The notes below the pieces were generated by a model, which was not told the origin of the DNA, did not search any database, and saw only the letters and a list, made by a program, of their open reading frames with translations. Below, one piece after another: positions 22,887-29,766 of a DNA stretch of 35,551 bases. The DNA is from Myxococcales bacterium (GTDB lineage: Bacteria > Myxococcota > Kuafuiibacteriia > Kuafuiibacteriales > Kuafuiibacteriaceae), in contig JAHQVK010000101.1 in NCBI GenBank assembly GCA_019634385.1, forward strand, positions 1 through 35,551. Reading direction: 5' to 3'. Every line of letters begins with the position of its first letter. Position 1 is the first letter of the stretch. Made by a program: the position numbers and the translations under genes.

Positions 22887-24461
22887 GTGAAAGCATTAAC
22901 TGGTTATAGTGTGTTGCCCGTGCTCATTTGGGGCCTTTGGAGTTGCGCGAGTTCCCCTGGCGTACAAGGTGCTCATTCGGTTGTTCCTCAGTCGGGACCA
23001 TCATGGGTGCTTCAAGGTTCACGGGTGGAGGGCCGGAGGATTTTCGGTGTCGGCTCCGCGTCCAATATTCGCAATAAGGAGCTCGCGCTCTCCACCGCTC
23101 AAAATCGCGGACGCTCAGAGATTGCTCGTCTGGTATCCACCTACTCGGCTTCGTTGATGCGTGATTACCAGAGCTCTTTGAGTGGTTCGGGAGCGGAGGA
23201 ACAAGGAGCTCAGGCCGTGGAGCAAGTGATCCGTACCTATTCTGCGGAGCTGCTATCAGGTGCCCAGCAATCTGATGCCTGGTACCATCCAGATACCAGT
23301 ACTTGGTATGTGCGAATGGTTCTTAACGTAGATCGGTCAGAGGCGATCGCCGCGGTGGCTTCTGCTTCGGGGGGGAAATCTATGGCCAACTGGGTACGAG
23401 ATAACCAGGCCCGGGTGCTTGCTGAACTAGAACAAGAGATGCGTCCTCTGCCTCGTCCTCCTCGTGAATCAGCTTCATGGTCCGGGATGTCACCGGTGAA
23501 CAACTTTTTATCTGCGGGGTCGCAGAACACTAAGCCGGACTGGGTCGATGGGGCCTGTGAGCGTTCTCGGTATCTCTGTGGTAGTGGGGAGGCAGCTACG
23601 CCAACCGAGGCGGATCAACGGGCTCGTGCGGCACTATCTCTGATCTTCGAGGCTAATATCCAAGCGGTGTCTAAGAGTTTTCAGAAGGCGGTTCGAGAGG
23701 TGAGTCAGCGTACAGGGGAGACATGGAAAGAAGTAGAGACCGTTTCTGATCATTCGATGGTGTCTACAAATAAGACCATCGTATTGTCGGACATAGTTGA
23801 ACGGTGGGTGTCGCCTCAGAAACGGGTTTGGAGTCTGGCGGTGGTGGATAGAGCCAAAGCGTCATCTGTTCTCCGCCAGCAGATGACGGTCTTAGATAAG
23901 AAGATTGAGGATGAATTGCTGGATGCTCGCCGGTCGAAAGACCCGATCTCTAAGTTACCAAAATTAAGAGCTGTGCTCCGCAGCTTGAGTGAGCGAGCGG
24001 CGCTAGAGGCGGATTTCCGAGTTGTTTCGACCAATGGTCGGGCGCCGGTCGGTATGGTGAAATGGCAGGATGTGGTGGCGTTGATTGAAGAAACGTCGAC
24101 CAATCTTTCCATCGGTTTGCATGTGACGGGGGACGCTGCGGAACATATTCGGGGATGTATGGAAGATGCGTTTACTAGCAAGGGGTACCAACTAAGTTAT
24201 GAGCAGAAGGGTGAAGACGTTCAGATAGAAGTTGAAATGCGCTCAGCCGATCTGGGTAAACTGTCTGGTGGGCAGGTTGTTCAGGCCAACCTGGTTGTAC
24301 GATTGATCAATGGCCGAAGTCGTCGAACGATACGCACCTTGCGCGATTCAACGAAGGCAACACGTCGGTCAGTCTCTGCGGCTGAACGAACGGCCGCTGT
24401 GAAACTATGCAAAAAGAAAATCCCGGTGATTCTTCGAGATATTGATCGGCTCTTTAACTAG
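22887..24461 (+). CDS. large lipoprotein with two LPP20-like domains
   Basis: The 524-residue protein starts at a GTG; no in-frame ATG nearby keeps the signal peptide, which ends in the lipobox LWSC (Cys20). A first LPP20-like domain (about residues 38-160, with IFGVGSASNIRNKELALSTAQNRG) is paralogous to the protein at 18927-19526. A second, more divergent copy follows (about 215-330, with YLCGSGEAATPTEADQRAR), then a C-terminal alpha/beta domain (about 400-524) that I cannot name. The stop codon TAG lies in a CTAGGGCGTG sequence like the MITE ends at 29106 and 29594, so the true C-terminus may have been altered by insertion. Confidence 0.75.
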   Translation: MKALTGYSVLPVLIWGLWSCASSPGVQGAHSVVPQSGPSWVLQGSRVEGRRIFGVGSASNIRNKELALSTAQNRGRSEIARLVSTYSASLMRDYQSSLSGSGAEEQGAQAVEQVIRTYSAELLSGAQQSDAWYHPDTSTWYVRMVLNVDRSEAIAAVASASGGKSMANWVRDNQARVLAELEQEMRPLPRPPRESASWSGMSPVNNFLSAGSQNTKPDWVDGACERSRYLCGSGEAATPTEADQRARAALSLIFEANIQAVSKSFQKAVREVSQRTGETWKEVETVSDHSMVSTNKTIVLSDIVERWVSPQKRVWSLAVVDRAKASSVLRQQMTVLDKKIEDELLDARRSKDPISKLPKLRAVLRSLSERAALEADFRVVSTNGRAPVGMVKWQDVVALIEETSTNLSIGLHVTGDAAEHIRGCMEDAFTSKGYQLSYEQKGEDVQIEVEMRSADLGKLSGGQVVQANLVVRLINGRSRRTIRTLRDSTKATRRSVSAAERTAAVKLCKKKIPVILRDIDRLFN

Positions 24462-24623
24462 GGCGTGTTTTCAACCTATAGGTATGCTCGCCACGTCGTC
24501 AGAGCGTTTCACGAAAAGCCTGGCTCGATAGCTACACACATGGCTAAATCAACCGGCTGCTAGCCTCTTCGTACGAGTCCGAATTTTCAGTTAGTTCCTC
24601 ACGGATCTTAAAGGCACGCCCAG
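24458..24623. repeat. candidate degenerate MITE, family A
   Basis: The left end CTAGGGCGTGTTTTC (24458-24472) resembles the family A terminal repeat seen at 29106 and 29594. The right end CTTAAAGGCACGCCCAG (24607-24623) is its imperfect inverse. The 166-base length fits the family (173-188). The interior is not obviously similar to the other copies. The left end supplies the stop codon of the lipoprotein gene. The remaining gap to 24742 shows no gene or clear terminator. Confidence 0.4.
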
Positions 24624-24742: not shown

Positions 24743-25654
24743 TTACAAGGGGGTATGGGTTAGGCAGGCTATGACGTACACACCAAACTCTAGATAGTAT
24801 AGGTGCCAGATTCTTTGGTAGAGTTTTGCTATATCGTCCGGTTTGACTAGAGGCTGCCATGGAGCAGTTTTTAGGAGAGCATATGAAGGTATGGCGTGCC
24901 CAAGAACCATAACCGTACCGTTCATTCCTCGAATCCCTGCTATAGCCGAAAGCATGATCACTACATAGAGGGCAATCAAGATACAGACCGCCATTTGTGT
25001 GATACGGTGGGGGCCGTAGCGCACGCTAAACGTACGTACACTGTGGGCTTGGTCGCCAGCCACGTCTGGTGCATCTTTAAGGAGCGCGATAACCAGCATA
25101 AATGTTACGATGAAGGCCGTAAAAATAATGAGATGAAACGGTATATATGGGTCTTGATGTAGTCCTACACAAAAAGTCAGCCATAGACCTAGGTTTCCGA
25201 CCACTCCTCTGGATAGAACTATACTTAGCATAGCCAACACTGGAAACCGTTTAAGGCGCAGTGGGGGCAATGAATATACCGAGCCTACGATAAAAACGGT
25301 CCCGATGGTGAATAGTAACCACCATCCACCGATCCACGCGAGTCCTAGGGCAAGGAGTCCGGAGCAAAGAATAATTGTCAACGCTTCCGTGATTCTAAGT
25401 CGCTGTGAGGGAATAGGTAGATGAGGTTTGTTGATATGATCAATGTCAATGTCAGTCAGTTGGTTGAGGCCAACAATGTACATATTCACTGCGAGAGCGG
25501 CGCCTAAGCTAGTGAACAACAGAGATAGATTCGAGCCTTGGGCTTCGTGGCTGGCTACAAGATATAAGGTTACTACCGCAAGGGTGGAGCCAATAATGGT
25601 GTGTGGCCTAGAAAAATCCCACAAGGCATGAAGGTAGTGAAGATGTTGTTTCAT
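24743..25654 (-). CDS. homogentisate prenyltransferase (UbiA superfamily, HPT/VTE2-like)
   Basis: This membrane enzyme should condense homogentisate with phytyl or geranylgeranyl diphosphate, the committed step of tocopherol or tocotrienol synthesis. The 303 residues have the start LHALWDFSRPHTIIGSTLAV and both Mg-diphosphate motifs: NQLTDIDID (64-72) followed by HINKPHLPI, and KDAPDVAGD (193-201). SLPPLRLKRFPVLAML and LYQRIWHLYYLEFGVYVIA complete the resemblance to cyanobacterial HPT (Slr1736). About eight or nine membrane helices are apparent. It is last of four overlapping genes; its start overlaps the preceding stop by four bases. A plastoquinone-type homogentisate prenyltransferase is less likely given the neighbours. 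Confidence 0.88.
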   Translation of the reverse strand: MKQHLHYLHALWDFSRPHTIIGSTLAVVTLYLVASHEAQGSNLSLLFTSLGAALAVNMYIVGLNQLTDIDIDHINKPHLPIPSQRLRITEALTIILCSGLLALGLAWIGGWWLLFTIGTVFIVGSVYSLPPLRLKRFPVLAMLSIVLSRGVVGNLGLWLTFCVGLHQDPYIPFHLIIFTAFIVTFMLVIALLKDAPDVAGDQAHSVRTFSVRYGPHRITQMAVCILIALYVVIMLSAIAGIRGMNGTVMVLGHAIPSYALLKTAPWQPLVKPDDIAKLYQRIWHLYYLEFGVYVIACLTHTPL

Positions 25655-26508
25655 GAACTTGTACCTTGTTTACGAGCTGCTATGACCGTGTAGCGTACGA
25701 GCCCTTGTGAAAGTCCTTGCCGCATAGACCACCCGCCACTAGCTCCTTTTATCATCGTCAACCCGCCCTTTGCTAGTGCTTGTACACCCTTGAGCGTGAA
25801 CATGCTGTTGATGACTGCATGCCAGAAGGGAGTGACGTATGAAGACCAATCCTCAGTTTGGATGTTCTCATAAGCTAGCTCATCAAGGAGGGTCTCGTAT
25901 GTTGATAAGGGCACCCATGTTAGCGAATCCTGGTAGGCGTGGCTGATGCGACTAAGCAACCGAAGCTCTGCTGGAGACAGTTCGGGAGGCGCAGGACGAT
26001 GGCACCATGTGGCCATGATGATATGTCCCCCCGGACGAAGCACTCGATCACATTCTTTTAGGAAGGTTTGCTTGCAGGGCATATGTTCGCCACTCTCTAG
26101 CGACCAAACCATATCAAAGCTCTCGTCGGCAAATGGTGTTTGGTTGGCGTCACCCACATGAAAACGTACATCTGGTTGACTGATAGAAAGCTTTTCCGCG
26201 ATGCTTCGTTGAACGGGGCTGAGGGTTATACCATCAACCTCGGCCCCATAGTGTAAAGCTAGCCATCGGGTGCTGCCGCCCACACCGCAGCCCGCGTCGA
26301 GTATGTGACGAATGCTTTCATTCTTTGGCGCGCCGCTCCAGTTAATGAGCGCGGATATCATATCAACCTGCGCCTGCTGATGGTTTTGGGCGGTGCTTTT
26401 TTGGGGGACGTAGTAGCCGTGATGGAGATGTTCACCCCAAACATGTACCCACCCTTGGGTGGTCTGGTCGTAGAGTTTCTGGATTCTCTCGTGTAGGCCC
26501 AGCGTCAT
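25651..26508 (-). CDS. gamma-tocopherol methyltransferase-like SAM methyltransferase (VTE4-like)
   Basis: It should methylate the chromanol ring of gamma- or delta-tocopherol using S-adenosylmethionine. The 285 residues open with LYDQTTQGWVHVWGEHLHHGYY. SAM motif I is LDAGCGVGG (70-78), then GITLSPVQ and FDMVWSLESGEHMPCK. The tail EDWSSYVTPFWHAVINSMFTLKG resembles plant and cyanobacterial gamma-TMT, distinguishing it from the MPBQ-type enzyme upstream. It overlaps the cyclase gene by four bases and the prenyltransferase gene by four. Other small-molecule methyltransferases share this fold, so the substrate is inferred mainly from context plus the tail. Confidence 0.82.
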   Translation of the reverse strand: MTLGLHERIQKLYDQTTQGWVHVWGEHLHHGYYVPQKSTAQNHQQAQVDMISALINWSGAPKNESIRHILDAGCGVGGSTRWLALHYGAEVDGITLSPVQRSIAEKLSISQPDVRFHVGDANQTPFADESFDMVWSLESGEHMPCKQTFLKECDRVLRPGGHIIMATWCHRPAPPELSPAELRLLSRISHAYQDSLTWVPLSTYETLLDELAYENIQTEDWSSYVTPFWHAVINSMFTLKGVQALAKGGLTMIKGASGGWSMRQGLSQGLVRYTVIAARKQGTSS

Positions 26509-27494
26509 AAGCGGGATCTCCTAGATGGCAGGCGCGAGCTTAACTTGTTAATATCACCATGGATTTCGTAGGCTGCCTGCCGTCCGGTTCCGTTGTACAC
26601 TGTGTGTCCAAGGTGATCCACCAAGCGGGTGTAGAGATTTCCTGGCATATGTTCCTGAACCGTATGGTCCATGGAGGTGGTGGAGGGGATATGAACGGAG
26701 GTTGCAGAGCCGCCTTCAGCTGTAACTTCTAGGCGATAGGAACGATCGTAGATGACCAAGCGGACGCTGTTGCTTCCCGCATTGATGCTTTCTAACCTTG
26801 CTCCAGTGTATGAAGTCATGGGGATCAGTGTGCCGTTTAGCCAAACACCAGCGAGCAGTCCTGGGAAGGTATAGCCGAGCCACGGCACACTAGCTAGCGA
26901 AAGGCTGACACACACCTCGTCATCGGCAAAGCTATGACTTTGCATCCATATCCAATTGCTCGGAAAGCTTCGGCCCCAATCTTTTTCAATATAACCTCGT
27001 CCGCCGCTGAAGTTATATCGCTTGTTGCGAACAACTAGATATCCCTCGAGGGGATGATGGAAACTGACGATGCCATGATAGCACTGCATGAAGGGAGCCC
27101 AGGCGTACCACCCCATTGCCCCTGGGGATATAAGGCTCACCGGCCAAGGGTTCAAAGGGCCAAACTGTACTGAGCCTTGGCAAGTATCGGTATGAATATC
27201 TAATCCATCCGTCCCAAAATGATGCTCCCCGATGGCAATCTCAAACCGGTCTTCTTTACCGGAGAAGCTTTCGATCGGAAACCGGTGGTAGATAGCCGAC
27301 TGCCGGTGGTTAATGAGAATTTGGACGAACGCATGGGCTGAGCCAGGGGAGCGGCCGCGAAAGATACCAGGGATTAGAGCTAGTCCCTCTCCATCGGCCG
27401 TTATGAGTTTGATGTACCAGCCTTCGAAGAACGGTGATCCTGTATTCCGTCCATGAAAACCAGCTGGAGAAAGGATGTTTCTTAGCCAGGGCAT
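26505..27494 (-). CDS. tocopherol cyclase (VTE1-like)
   Basis: Tocopherol cyclase closes the chromanol ring of the prenylated methylbenzoquinol. The 329 residues show the family pattern: FFEGWYIKLI (22-31), GWYAWAPFMQCYHGIVSFHH (about 128-147), and the most diagnostic block GGRGYIEKDWGRSFPSNW with IWMQ (about 164-185). Later come VPWLGYTFPGLLAGVWL and a beta-rich C-terminus with MPGNLYTRLVDHLG. I know this family essentially from plants, algae and cyanobacteria (SXD1/VTE1/Slr1737). The start overlaps the upstream methyltransferase by 13 bases and the stop overlaps the downstream one by four. Confidence 0.9.
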   Translation of the reverse strand: MPWLRNILSPAGFHGRNTGSPFFEGWYIKLITADGEGLALIPGIFRGRSPGSAHAFVQILINHRQSAIYHRFPIESFSGKEDRFEIAIGEHHFGTDGLDIHTDTCQGSVQFGPLNPWPVSLISPGAMGWYAWAPFMQCYHGIVSFHHPLEGYLVVRNKRYNFSGGRGYIEKDWGRSFPSNWIWMQSHSFADDEVCVSLSLASVPWLGYTFPGLLAGVWLNGTLIPMTSYTGARLESINAGSNSVRLVIYDRSYRLEVTAEGGSATSVHIPSTTSMDHTVQEHMPGNLYTRLVDHLGHTVYNGTGRQAAYEIHGDINKLSSRLPSRRSRL

Positions 27495-28357
27495 TTTGTA
27501 TCCCGTTTTCGAGCATGGATGACACCGTAGCGGATAGAACCCTGTTGGTAGCCGCGGATCATATGCCAGATAGCGACGACATCTCTAAGAGAACGGCGCA
27601 CTACGGCCCATCCTTGGCGGAGGAGCCAGGGCAGGTCACCAAGTCCCATCCAGATCTGATGAGGCCAGGTACCACGAACGTGGGTGGTCCAATCCGAGGT
27701 TCGAATCTCGATGAGCTCCGGATGAGCGTTGGCCATGGTTTCGTACTGGGGGATTGAGACAAAGAAGGGAAGTGCCCAAGCATGATAGATACGTTGCAGG
27801 CGGTGTTGTTCTGCGGCGCTCAATGCAGGAGGCTCTGAGCGATGGCACCAGGTTGCGATCACCAGGTGGCCACCTGGTCGTAGAACGCGGACCATCTCGC
27901 GCAGGAAGACTTCTTTGTCAGGCATGTGTTCGCCTGACTCGCATGACCAAACTAGGTCAAAAGTACTGTCAGGGAAAGGAAGCTCTAGAGCGTCCGCGAC
28001 TTTGAAGCTCACCTTCATATGAGATGGAGTAAGTTCGGTGGCTCGGTTCATCTGAGCCGGACTGAGGGTTACACCGGTTACCTCCGCGTTTGGCCATCGT
28101 TCAGCGAGATAACGGGCACTACCACCGATGCCGCATCCGACATCTAGGGCGTCATGTATAGTCTTTAGCTTTGTCCACCGAGTCAGCTGGTCAAGTAGTT
28201 CTATTTTTGCCCTTTTGAAATCCTGCTGCCACCAGCGATGGTCAGGATAATACCCGTGGTGAATATGCTCGCCCCAAAAGTGCTCCAGTACGCCGTCTTG
28301 GGTCCATGCATCGTACGCCTGGGTAATGCTATTGCTGCCTAGATAACTTTGGGTCAT
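27482..28357 (-). CDS. MPBQ/MSBQ-type methyltransferase (cyanobacterial Slr0418-like)
   Basis: It should methylate 2-methyl-6-phytylbenzoquinol before ring closure. The 291 residues carry AYDAWTQDGVLEHFWGEHIHHGYY (14-37). SAM motif I is LDVGCGIGG (71-79), then GVTLSPAQMNRATELTP and FDLVWSCESGEHMPDKEVFLREM. The region SDWTTHVRGTWPHQIWMGL resembles the TADW..PTLPAWLDTIW stretch of Slr0418, which is why I separate it from the gamma-TMT-like gene. The N-terminal hydrophobic segment of Slr0418 is missing. It is first in the operon; AGAGAG lies just upstream of the ATG. Confidence 0.82.
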   Translation of the reverse strand: MTQSYLGSNSITQAYDAWTQDGVLEHFWGEHIHHGYYPDHRWWQQDFKRAKIELLDQLTRWTKLKTIHDALDVGCGIGGSARYLAERWPNAEVTGVTLSPAQMNRATELTPSHMKVSFKVADALELPFPDSTFDLVWSCESGEHMPDKEVFLREMVRVLRPGGHLVIATWCHRSEPPALSAAEQHRLQRIYHAWALPFFVSIPQYETMANAHPELIEIRTSDWTTHVRGTWPHQIWMGLGDLPWLLRQGWAVVRRSLRDVVAIWHMIRGYQQGSIRYGVIHARKRDTKCPG

Positions 28358-28504: not shown

Positions 28505-28602
28505 CGGTCGGGTACATCTCGTACCCTCTCTCCGGGGCTGACCCCCCACAAACGGGGGCTACGACGTCATCTCCGCTGCCGGAGTTGGAAGACACACCCT
28601 AG
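28505..28602. repeat. degenerate MITE, family A, right part only
   Basis: The block around 28521-28602 shares CGTACCCTC.CTCCGGGGC.GACCC, the following GGC.TACG.CGTCAT.TCC and a final GACAC.CCCTAG with the copies at 29106-29293 and 29594-29766. The right end GACACACCCTAG is recognisable but I found no left terminal repeat, so the copy is truncated or eroded. Its terminal CTAG (28599-28602) is also the left boundary of the family B element. Confidence 0.6.
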
Positions 28603-28766
28603 CGGGCCATCGGAAAAGTGAGTTAGGCGCTTCGCTGGTCCTTTTTCCGTGGAACGTCCGGACCGGCTTCGCCTTTCATCGGTTGTATGCGCCCTCTTCA
28701 TCCGGAGCGTTCCACGGAAAAGATACTTCGCGGATCACCCATCCCACTTTTCCGATGGCCTGCTAG
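28599..28766. repeat. MITE-like element, family B, copy 2 (complete)
   Basis: The 168-base element has terminal inverted repeats CTAGCGGGCCATCGGAAAAG at the left and, at the right, the inverse of CTAGCAGGCCATCGGAAAAG. Both ends finish in CTAG. Much of it recurs inverted at 1-139. No coding capacity is convincing. The next 159 bases (28767-28925) show no gene or recognisable element. Confidence 0.7.
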
Positions 28767-28925: not shown

Positions 28926-29109
28926 CTGGGTCGTGTCTTTTAAACGTCGGACGCGGCCTACGCGTCGTCTCTGAGTAGCCTGGATGTCCGGTGTGAGCTC
29001 CGGTCCCATCTCTTGTTGCCCCTCAGTCAATCGGAATGGCTAGCTAAGCTTAGTCTAAATAAGGTGCTCAGAAAATGTAGATCCACACCGAATGAAAGAC
29101 ACGCTCTAG
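28926..29109. repeat. MITE-like element, family A-related
   Basis: Left end CTGGGTCGTGTCTTT (28926-28940) and right end AAAGACACGCTCTAG (29095-29109) are inverse at 12 of 15 positions. The interior differs from the other family A copies, so it may be a distinct subfamily sharing only termini. It abuts the next element, sharing CTAG at 29106-29109. Confidence 0.55.
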
Positions 29110-29293
29110 GGCGTGTCTTTACCCTCCGGACCGCGTTCTGACTTGCATCCCACCTTTGTGAGGGAACGGTGGCATTGCCCTCCTTTCGGGCCTCTTGGTC
29201 CGTTACATCCCGTACCCTCCCTCCGGGGCCGACCCTTCGCACATGCGGTTTACGGCGTCATCTCCACAGCTAGAGGGTAAAGACACGCCCTAG
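29106..29293. repeat. MITE-like element, family A, best-preserved copy
   Basis: The 188-base element has perfect 21-base terminal inverted repeats (29106-29126 and 29273-29293), beginning CTAGGGCGTGTCTTTACCCT. It has no ORF of note. Its right CTAG (29290-29293) contains the stop codon of the glutaredoxin gene on the minus strand. CTAG or TA target duplication would fit IS5/IS630-like mobilising transposases, but no transposase is in the window. Confidence 0.8.
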
Positions 29294-29544
29294 TCTTTAA
29301 GTTTTGATTCAAGTTTGCCGGATTGGGCTAGGGCTGCCAGCTCGGTATAACCACCGATCGATTCTTCGCCAATAAATATTTGAGGCACAGTCCGCTGTCC
29401 GGTTACCTGAGCCAGCCAGGCTCTGGTTTGGGTATCGCCATCAACATCAATGGTTTCATACGGTACTTGCTGTTGGCTGAGGAGTGCCTTGGCCCGTTGG
29501 CAGTATGGGCACCACTCAGTAAGATAAATTTTTACTGACTTCAT
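29290..29544 (-). CDS. glutaredoxin (GrxC-type, dithiol)
   Basis: The 84-residue protein is a cytoplasmic thiol-disulfide oxidoreductase working with glutathione. The dithiol active site CPYC lies at residues 12-15. The cis-proline motif TVPQIFI and the glutathione-binding GG segment (ESIGGYTEL) follow, as in E. coli Grx3 (83 residues). Both sides are occupied by MITEs: one supplies the stop codon, another begins 50 bases upstream of the start. It therefore has a very short native upstream region, and its promoter may lie in the MITE. Its nearness to the tocopherol genes hints at redox defence, but this is only context. Confidence 0.92.
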   Translation of the reverse strand: MKSVKIYLTEWCPYCQRAKALLSQQQVPYETIDVDGDTQTRAWLAQVTGQRTVPQIFIGEESIGGYTELAALAQSGKLESKLKD

Positions 29545-29593: not shown

Positions 29594-29766
29594 CTAGGGA
29601 GTGCCTTTACCCTCCAGACCGCGTTCTGACTTGTATCCTGCGCTTGTGCGGGGTCGGCGGCTTCGCCCCCCCTTTCGGCCTTCCCGTACCCTCCTTCCGG
29701 GGCCGACCCCTCACAACGGGGGCTACGGCGTCATATCCGCGGCCGGAGGGTAAAGACACGCCCTAG
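29594..29766. repeat. MITE-like element, family A, copy upstream of the glutaredoxin gene
   Basis: The 173-base element starts CTAGGGAGTGCCTTTACCCT (29594) and ends with the inverse of CTAGGGCGTGTCTTTACCCT (29746-29766). Terminal repeats agree at 19 of 21 positions. Its interior shares long blocks with 29106-29293, such as GACCGCGTTCTGACTTG near the left end. It lies between the glutaredoxin and glycosyltransferase genes. Confidence 0.8.

What the first reader, a model, noticed from the sequence alone, without database searches (positions are those of the whole stretch)
24743..28357. A complete four-gene tocopherol (vitamin E) operon in a genome section with no photosynthesis genes
Seen: four minus-strand genes in a row with motifs of an MPBQ-type methyltransferase, a tocopherol cyclase (GGRGYIEKDWGRSFPSNW), a gamma-TMT-like methyltransferase and a homogentisate prenyltransferase (NQLTDIDID, KDAPDVAGD). 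Established: these are the post-homogentisate steps in cyanobacteria and plants, where to my knowledge the genes are dispersed and the product is tied to photosynthetic membranes. Inference: this bacterium makes tocopherols or tocotrienols as a membrane antioxidant, using a compact, transferable gene set. I know of no described equivalent in a non-phototrophic bacterium.
Basis: partly seen in the sequence, partly recalled or inferred. Interest (0 to 1): 0.93.

Follow-up and report, generated by a model that had tools for sequence, protein, structure and literature searches.

The report
Vitamin E-type operon in Myxococcota
A bacterium of the myxobacterial phylum with no detected photosynthesis reaction-centre gene carries, side by side, genes that look like the late steps of vitamin E synthesis, but its ring-closing enzyme resembles a poorly understood bacterial family more than the plant and cyanobacterial one.

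Summary
The four genes are real: overlapping minus-strand ORFs for methyltransferase A, a cyclase-like protein, methyltransferase B and homogentisate prenyltransferase (HPT). HPT passes the curated NCBIfam model (302 bits, cut-off 226). Against recalled Synechocystis sequences, MT-B is gamma-TMT-like (43%) and MT-A leans to MPBQ methyltransferase (40%). The cyclase hits Pfam Tocopherol_cycl (66 bits) but groups outside the cyanobacterial/plant references, with a family found alone in mostly heterotrophic bacteria: 0 of 80 fetched loci have HPT in the flank held, and 0 of 50 of those genomes encode one over the cut-off. The assembly (5.4 Mb, 93% complete, Myxococcota) has no type II reaction-centre match, although a same-family genome does. 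It lacks a detectable HPPD, the usual homogentisate source, which 116 of 193 sampled phylum genomes have. A repeat with 305 end matches genome-wide flanks the operon, so contamination is unlikely. HPT plus cyclase together were found only here among 193-195 sampled phylum genomes. Best reading: a chimeric tocochromanol operon, cyanobacterial-type prenylation and methylation joined to a different branch of cyclase. Product, cyclase activity and homogentisate supply are unproven.

The parts
27482..28357 (-). MT-A: SAM methyltransferase, leaning to the MPBQ-methyltransferase (slr0418) type; first gene of the operon
   Evidence: PF08241 E 1e-26; 40% identity and 210 bits to recalled slr0418 against 191 bits to recalled slr0089
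26505..27494 (-). Tocopherol-cyclase-like protein (PF14249) of the non-cyanobacterial branch, AttH/lipocalin-like fold
   Evidence: PF14249 66.4 bits; 40-44% to its five best relatives, about 25% to the recalled Synechocystis cyclase; tree; model pLDDT 92.9; fold search
25651..26508 (-). MT-B: SAM methyltransferase, gamma-tocopherol methyltransferase (slr0089/VTE4) type
   Evidence: PF08241 E 4e-24; 43% and 219 bits to recalled slr0089 against 138 bits to recalled slr0418; the six best-ranked of 245 matching plasmid records are cyanobacterial (30 records listed)
24743..25654 (-). HPT: homogentisate prenyltransferase (UbiA superfamily), last gene of the operon
   Evidence: NF009525 302 bits, cut-off 226; motifs NQLTDIDID and KDAPDVAGD
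24458..24623 (.). Probable degenerate copy of the transposon-like repeat between the operon's 3' end and the convergent neighbouring gene
   Evidence: Perfect CTAGGGCGTGT at 24458; decayed right end read by eye
28517..28603 (.). Remnant of the same repeat upstream of the operon
   Evidence: Direct-repeat families D1 and D3
29106..29293 (.). 188-bp MITE-like repeat, 21-bp terminal inverted repeats, ends in CTAG
29594..29766 (.). 173-bp MITE-like repeat of the same family

Best explanation
The operon encodes the post-homogentisate part of a tocochromanol pathway in a Myxococcota bacterium without a detected type II reaction centre. HPT joins homogentisate (or a close analogue) to geranylgeranyl or phytyl diphosphate with loss of CO2; MT-A methylates the benzoquinol ring; the lipocalin-fold cyclase protonates the first prenyl double bond and lets the ring hydroxyl close a chromanol; MT-B methylates the chromanol. 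The product would be a tocotrienol or tocopherol serving as a membrane antioxidant. The cyclase was recruited from a different, mostly heterotroph family and not inherited with the cyanobacterial enzyme. Shown here: gene order, family membership of HPT, methyltransferase affinity to the references used, cyclase branch and fold class, genome context. Inferred: substrates, order of steps, product and role.
For: HPT over the curated equivalog cut-off, next-best model 69 bits. MT-B and MT-A each score best against a different recalled Synechocystis tocopherol methyltransferase. A model of MT-A and MT-B finds, in 20 other genomes searched, only one match at E <= 1e-25 (95 bits in G003). Overlapping ORFs. 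The cyclase keeps the YxEKxWG and FPxxWxW motifs and shares 36 columns that are invariant across 43 family rows, itself included; its fold neighbours include kievitone hydratase (7a0q, 7a0t), which from recall adds water to a prenyl double bond. Genomic anchoring: ribosomal-protein genes on the same contig, ends of a repeat found 305 times in the genome lie on both sides, GC 0.516 against 0.526 for the window and 0.536-0.540 for three other stretches of the genome.
Against: No HPPD in the assembly: best TIGR01263 score 30 bits in a 150-aa frame, while 116 of 193 sampled phylum genomes match at E <= 1e-20. The cyclase groups with proteins whose genomes lack HPT (0 of 50 over the cut-off), so this family's activity is not tocopherol synthesis in general. 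HPT is only 37% identical to recalled slr1736. The candidate geranylgeranyl reductase is not of the ChlP/BchP type (92.6 bits, cut-off 343.3). MT-A is only modestly closer to slr0418 than to slr0089 (210 against 191 bits). No product has been measured.
Confidence: 0.6

Rival explanations
1. The operon makes a methylated prenylquinone or a hydrated meroterpenoid rather than a chromanol: the cyclase-family protein acts as a prenyl hydratase or quinol-binding protein.
For: Fold neighbours are pericyclases, kievitone hydratase, AttH and a phosphosteroid lyase, not a solved tocopherol cyclase; the protein groups outside the cyanobacterial/plant references; it shares 8 of 74 columns typical of the two recalled cyclases, against a mean of 2.7 and a maximum of 7 for 64 other rows, a slight excess only.
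Against: It lies between two methyltransferases nearest to tocopherol types; if the usual order of steps holds (recalled), MT-B acts on a chromanol, so a cyclase is expected.
Confidence: 0.2
2. The operon acts on an aromatic acid other than homogentisate, giving a new chromanol or quinol.
For: HPPD not detected; HPT is only 37% identical to recalled slr1736.
Against: NF009525 score well above the equivalog cut-off; a gene can be missing by chance from a 93% complete assembly; homogentisate could also come from another route or from prey (not tested).
Confidence: 0.15
3. The operon sits on a mis-assembled or contaminating contig from a phototroph.
For: HPT and cyclase together were found only here among 193-195 sampled phylum genomes; the source is a 257-contig assembly.
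Against: Ribosomal-protein genes on the same contig; ends of a repeat with 305 matches in the genome and 0 in the reversed control lie on both sides; GC fits; identities to recalled Synechocystis proteins are only about 25-43%.
Confidence: 0.03

Closest known systems
Cyanobacterial/plant tocopherol pathway (HPT/VTE2, cyclase/VTE1, MPBQ-MT, gamma-TMT/VTE4)
   Same: Same four apparent functions; HPT over the curated cut-off, gamma-TMT-like MT-B, MPBQ-MT-leaning MT-A
   Different: All four genes in one overlapping operon; cyclase from another branch; no type II reaction centre; no HPPD found
Tocopherol-cyclase-like proteins of heterotrophic bacteria (PMC4963081, passages seen)
   Same: The window cyclase is 40-44% identical to its five best matches and shares the EKDWG motif
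   Different: Those fetched stand without HPT (0 of 80 loci; 0 of 50 genomes over the cut-off); here it sits between tocopherol-type genes, on a long branch (1.46)
HPPD-HPT-UbiA-prenyl synthase cluster in Myxococcota genome G023
   Same: HPT of the same family (340 bits, 40% identity)
   Different: HPPD alongside (238 bits, under the cut-off of 277), but no match to the cyclase or to the methyltransferase model at E <= 1e-25
Methyl-plastoquinone of Nitrospirota (PMC12324825: title, start of abstract and a term search seen)
   Same: Plastoquinones in non-phototrophs, by the title
   Different: The paper's text holds none of the words tocopherol, homogentisate, cyclase or prenyltransferase

Membership tests
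Homogentisate phytyltransferase (NF009525) | Score over the curated cut-off of 226 bits | tested here: met
   302 bits
Homogentisate phytyltransferase (NF009525) | Uses homogentisate and phytyl or geranylgeranyl diphosphate | not testable with these tools
   Needs an assay
Tocopherol cyclase (VTE1/slr1737 type) | Pfam PF14249 over the gathering score | tested here: met
   66.4 bits, cut-off 26.6, residues 103-313 only; recalled VTE1 and slr1737 score 480 and 447
Tocopherol cyclase (VTE1/slr1737 type) | Groups with the cyanobacterial/plant enzymes | tested here: not met
   Separated by a branch with 100/99 support; groups with 64 other rows. Caveats: only two references, both recalled; all three have long end branches; the bootstrap had not settled
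Tocopherol cyclase (VTE1/slr1737 type) | YxEKNWG motif | tested here: inconclusive
   YIEKDWG, D in place of N, as in the non-cyanobacterial family
gamma-tocopherol methyltransferase | Closer to gamma-TMT than to MPBQ-MT | tested here: met
   MT-B 219 against 138 bits, recalled references
MPBQ methyltransferase, cyanobacterial type | Closer to MPBQ-MT than to gamma-TMT | tested here: inconclusive
   MT-A 210 against 191 bits, recalled references
Complete tocopherol pathway | HPPD in the genome | tested here: not met
   Best 30 bits against cut-off 277 in a 93% complete assembly
Complete tocopherol pathway | Geranylgeranyl reductase for a saturated side chain | tested here: inconclusive
   GG-reductase superfamily member at 206 bits, not ChlP/BchP; a Myxococcota member of this family is needed for cholesterol production (PMC12004948, title and passages)
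Complete tocopherol pathway | Tocochromanol in cells | not testable with these tools
   Needs mass spectrometry
Non-phototroph | No type II reaction-centre gene | tested here: met
   PF00124: no match in G000; 6 of 193 phylum genomes over the cut-off, one in the same family
Non-phototroph | No type I reaction centre, no bacteriochlorophyll genes | not tested
   No such search was made

The most novel reading that the evidence does not exclude
The solitary 'tocopherol cyclase-like' proteins (317 confirmed matches in the species-level collection, of which I saw the best 80, mostly in heterotrophs) are true chromanol-forming enzymes acting on their own prenylated quinols, for example menaquinol, so bacterial chromanol antioxidants are widespread; this operon is a natural graft of that family onto a tocopherol-type prenyltransferase and methyltransferase set, giving vitamin E by a second evolutionary route.
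Probability: 0.22. Interest if true: 0.88.

Novelty: new variant of a known kind. Interest (0 to 1): 0.68.

Why it matters
Tocochromanols are often stated to be made only by photosynthetic organisms (abstract starts of PMC5745509 and PMC9515888, listed). That rule already has claimed exceptions among protists: a listed title reports tocopherol biosynthesis in Leishmania (PMC6443866, listing only). A compact operon in a bacterium without a detected reaction centre, with a cyclase from a different branch, would break the rule for bacteria. It would also give a first functional hint for a widespread bacterial protein family whose role was called open in 2016 (PMC4963081, passages). Four small adjacent genes are easy to express, so the claim is directly testable.

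Tried and rejected
Contamination was considered and set aside: repeats, ribosomal genes and GC tie the contig to the genome. A conserved neighbour of the solitary cyclases was looked for among up to six ORFs on each side in the 80 loci: apart from ORFs at the cyclase position itself (65 loci, and a second cluster of 11 that is apparently wrong-frame ORFs), no cluster reaches more than 8 loci (clusters were judged by the start of one representative, not annotated). Three scans of viral contigs for HPT and the methyltransferases gave no confirmed relative. HPT had no match on plasmids; the cyclase matched three plasmid records, of Monoglobus, Pusillibacter and Subdoligranulum, 29-32% identical. 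Promoter and terminator scans gave no more sites than shuffled sequence. No Rfam match in the window at gathering scores. No convincing solved relative of the cyclase by sequence (best E 0.35).

Limits: one search kept the best 80 of 317 matches, so 237 were not seen; loci were as short as 3.1 kb. 'Mostly heterotrophic' rests on record titles: two of the 80 loci (L051, L097) have contig lengths equal to contigs of G173 and G179, which have reaction-centre matches. The tree used 64 of the 80 loci; 16 were dropped because the ORF picker did not give the cyclase frame or the EKxWG motif. I chose 50 of the 80 genomes for the HPT search, which gives no completeness for them. Phylum samples were 195 and 193 genomes, the window's own included. 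The methyltransferase model was searched in 21 genomes only. HPT in other phyla, cyanobacteria included, could not be searched.
Full report
What is there. Four ORFs on the minus strand, 28357 down to 24743, overlap by 13, 4 and 4 bases. In transcription order they are MT-A (291 aa), a tocopherol-cyclase-like protein (329 aa), MT-B (285 aa) and HPT (303 aa). HPT scores 302 bits on the NCBIfam equivalog for homogentisate phytyltransferase (cut-off 226); the next model scores 69. The cyclase passes Pfam PF14249 at 66.4 bits over residues 103-313. Both methyltransferases match PF08241.

Where it is. The window is one 35,551-base contig of a 5.39-Mb, 257-contig assembly, 93.1% complete with 3.3% contamination. 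So the phylum is Myxococcota. The same contig bears ribosomal-protein, EF-G, EF-Tu, SecY and RpoA genes (names by my reading of the translations).

The contig belongs to the genome. A repeat with 21-bp terminal inverted repeats lies at 29106-29293 (188 bp) and 29594-29766 (173 bp). Its end sequence occurs 305 times in the assembly (173 forward, 132 reverse) with up to 2 mismatches, and 0 times in the reversed control. A perfect 11-base end at 24458 and a one-mismatch end at 28592-28602 lie on the two sides of the operon, with a decayed copy by eye at 24458-24623. The first copy folds strongly as single-stranded DNA (z -5.1), as its inverted ends would lead one to expect. GC of the operon is 0.516, of the window 0.526, and of three other stretches of the genome 0.536-0.540.

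Phototrophy. Photo_RC (PF00124) is over its cut-off in 6 of 193 phylum genomes and has no match in G000. One of the six, G002, is of the same family, and its contig C71 reads as a photosynthesis gene cluster (my reading). Phototrophic Myxococcota are known (PMC10576062, passages seen; 'tocopherol' occurs 0 times in its text). So the organism appears non-phototrophic but has a relative with phototrophy genes. Type I reaction centres and bacteriochlorophyll genes were not searched.

The methyltransferases. Against sequences recalled from memory, MT-B scores 219 bits (43%) with slr0089 (gamma-TMT) and 138 with slr0418 (MPBQ-MT); MT-A scores 210 bits (40%) with slr0418 and 191 with slr0089. In PLSDB plasmids 245 records match MT-B; the six best-ranked (32-37% identity, 78-96% of the query) are cyanobacterial by name (30 records listed). 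A model of MT-A and MT-B finds the two window genes at 572-600 bits and, in 20 other genomes, one match at E <= 1e-25 (95 bits in G003).

The cyclase is from another branch. Scanning one genome per species, one search confirmed 317 relatives and kept the best 80, at 37-44% identity, in Chloroflexota, Actinomycetota, Myxococcota, Bacteroidota, Calditrichota, KSB1 and others by record title; none of the 80 titles names a cyanobacterium. The window protein is 40-44% identical to its five best relatives and 24.5% to the recalled Synechocystis cyclase. In a maximum-likelihood tree of 69 rows it sits with 64 rows from those loci, on an end branch of 1.46, while the two recalled cyclases and two Myxococcota proteins of a second type lie on the other side of a branch with 100/99 support. 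The tool warns that the window row and both recalled rows are long, so their place is less sure, and that the bootstrap had not settled. The window protein matches 8 of 74 columns typical of the recalled cyclases, against a mean of 2.7 and a maximum of 7 for the 64 rows, a slight excess only.

That family stands alone. None of the 80 loci has an HPT match in the DNA held, up to 10 kb on each side and less for short contigs. Of the 50 of these genomes that I searched, 0 have an HPT over the cut-off; one, of a record titled Thermoplasmatota archaeon, has an 88-bit match. No neighbour cluster is widely shared. The members are mostly in heterotrophs by title, but two of the 80 lie in Myxococcota genomes with reaction-centre matches. 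In Myxococcota, 13 of 195 genomes, G000 included, have the cyclase at E <= 0.001, and 2 of 193, G000 included, have HPT at E <= 1e-20. The other HPT genome, G023, has no cyclase match, so only G000 has both.

Fold. AlphaFold2 on a 43-sequence alignment gives pLDDT 92.9 and pTM 0.92, a mostly beta protein. Foldseek's top 23 matches are fungal pericyclases Fsa2, Phm7 and CghA, kievitone hydratase, AttH 2ich and 25-phosphosteroid lyase, at E 3e-10 to 7e-6, TM-scores by query 0.44-0.58, rmsd 6.5-8.9 and 10-13% identity. This is the AttH/lipocalin-like class (class name recalled). From general knowledge, kievitone hydratase adds water across a prenyl double bond, the same activation a chromanol cyclase needs; the fold is compatible with cyclisation but does not prove it.

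Missing pieces. No HPPD: best TIGR01263 match 30 bits in a 150-aa frame, while 116 of 193 phylum genomes match at E <= 1e-20, including same-family G002; G001 and G003 of the same family do not. A geranylgeranyl-reductase-superfamily gene is present at C136 (206 bits, cut-off 158.8), but it is not ChlP/BchP (92.6 bits, cut-off 343.3), and a Myxococcota member of this family is needed for cholesterol production (PMC12004948, title and passages). Hence side-chain saturation, and so tocopherol against tocotrienol, is open.

Literature. PMC4963081 noted cyclase-like proteins in non-photosynthetic bacteria and called their function open (passages). Other searches: tocopherol cyclase with bacteria and non-photosynthetic, tocopherol biosynthesis, homogentisate phytyltransferase and heterotrophic bacteria (two of three terms), tocopherol with Myxococcota, tocopherol cyclase with metagenome-assembled (no papers), tocopherol, tocotrienol and non-photosynthetic bacteria, tocopherol, homogentisate, Chloroflexi and horizontal gene transfer. 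In the rows listed, titles and abstract starts only, I saw no tocopherol operon from a non-phototrophic bacterium; one title claims tocopherol biosynthesis in Leishmania (PMC6443866). The library holds open-licence papers only.

Conclusion. A tocochromanol-type operon of chimeric make-up is the best reading. The product, the homogentisate source and the activity of the cyclase family remain to be shown.

Noticed in passing
window 29106-29293, 29594-29766, 24458-24623, 28517-28603: MITE-like repeat with 21-bp ends CTAGGGCGTGTCTTTACCCTC; 305 end matches in the genome. The CTAG end overlaps the TAG stop codons of the genes ending at 24461 and 29290, suggesting CTAG as target site.
   Followed up: partly
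window 29290-29544 (-): Glutaredoxin 3 gene (TIGR02181, 93 bits) between two MITE-like copies.
   Followed up: partly
L030 9441-13733 (genome G023): HPT, an HPPD-like gene (238 bits, cut-off 277), a second UbiA-family gene and a polyprenyl diphosphate synthase side by side in another Myxococcota genome, without a match to the cyclase or the methyltransferase model: perhaps a homogentisate-derived prenylquinone.
   Followed up: partly
L028 4796-5860 and L029 6656-7732 (genomes G038, G041): Second type of cyclase-like protein with a lipoprotein-like N-terminus and DHNWG in place of EKxWG; grouped on the side of the recalled cyanobacterial and plant cyclases (PF14249 145 bits for L028).
   Followed up: partly
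L146 (genome G002, C71): Apparent photosynthesis gene cluster in a genome of the same family as the window's.
   Followed up: partly
genomes G173, G178, G179: Myxococcota with both a reaction-centre match and a match to the window cyclase; the G178 cyclase match is weak, E 5e-4.
   Followed up: no
hits H4-H9 (cyanobacterial plasmids): Methyltransferase genes on Nostoc, Halotia, Synechococcus and Picosynechococcus plasmids, 32-37% identical to MT-B.
   Followed up: no
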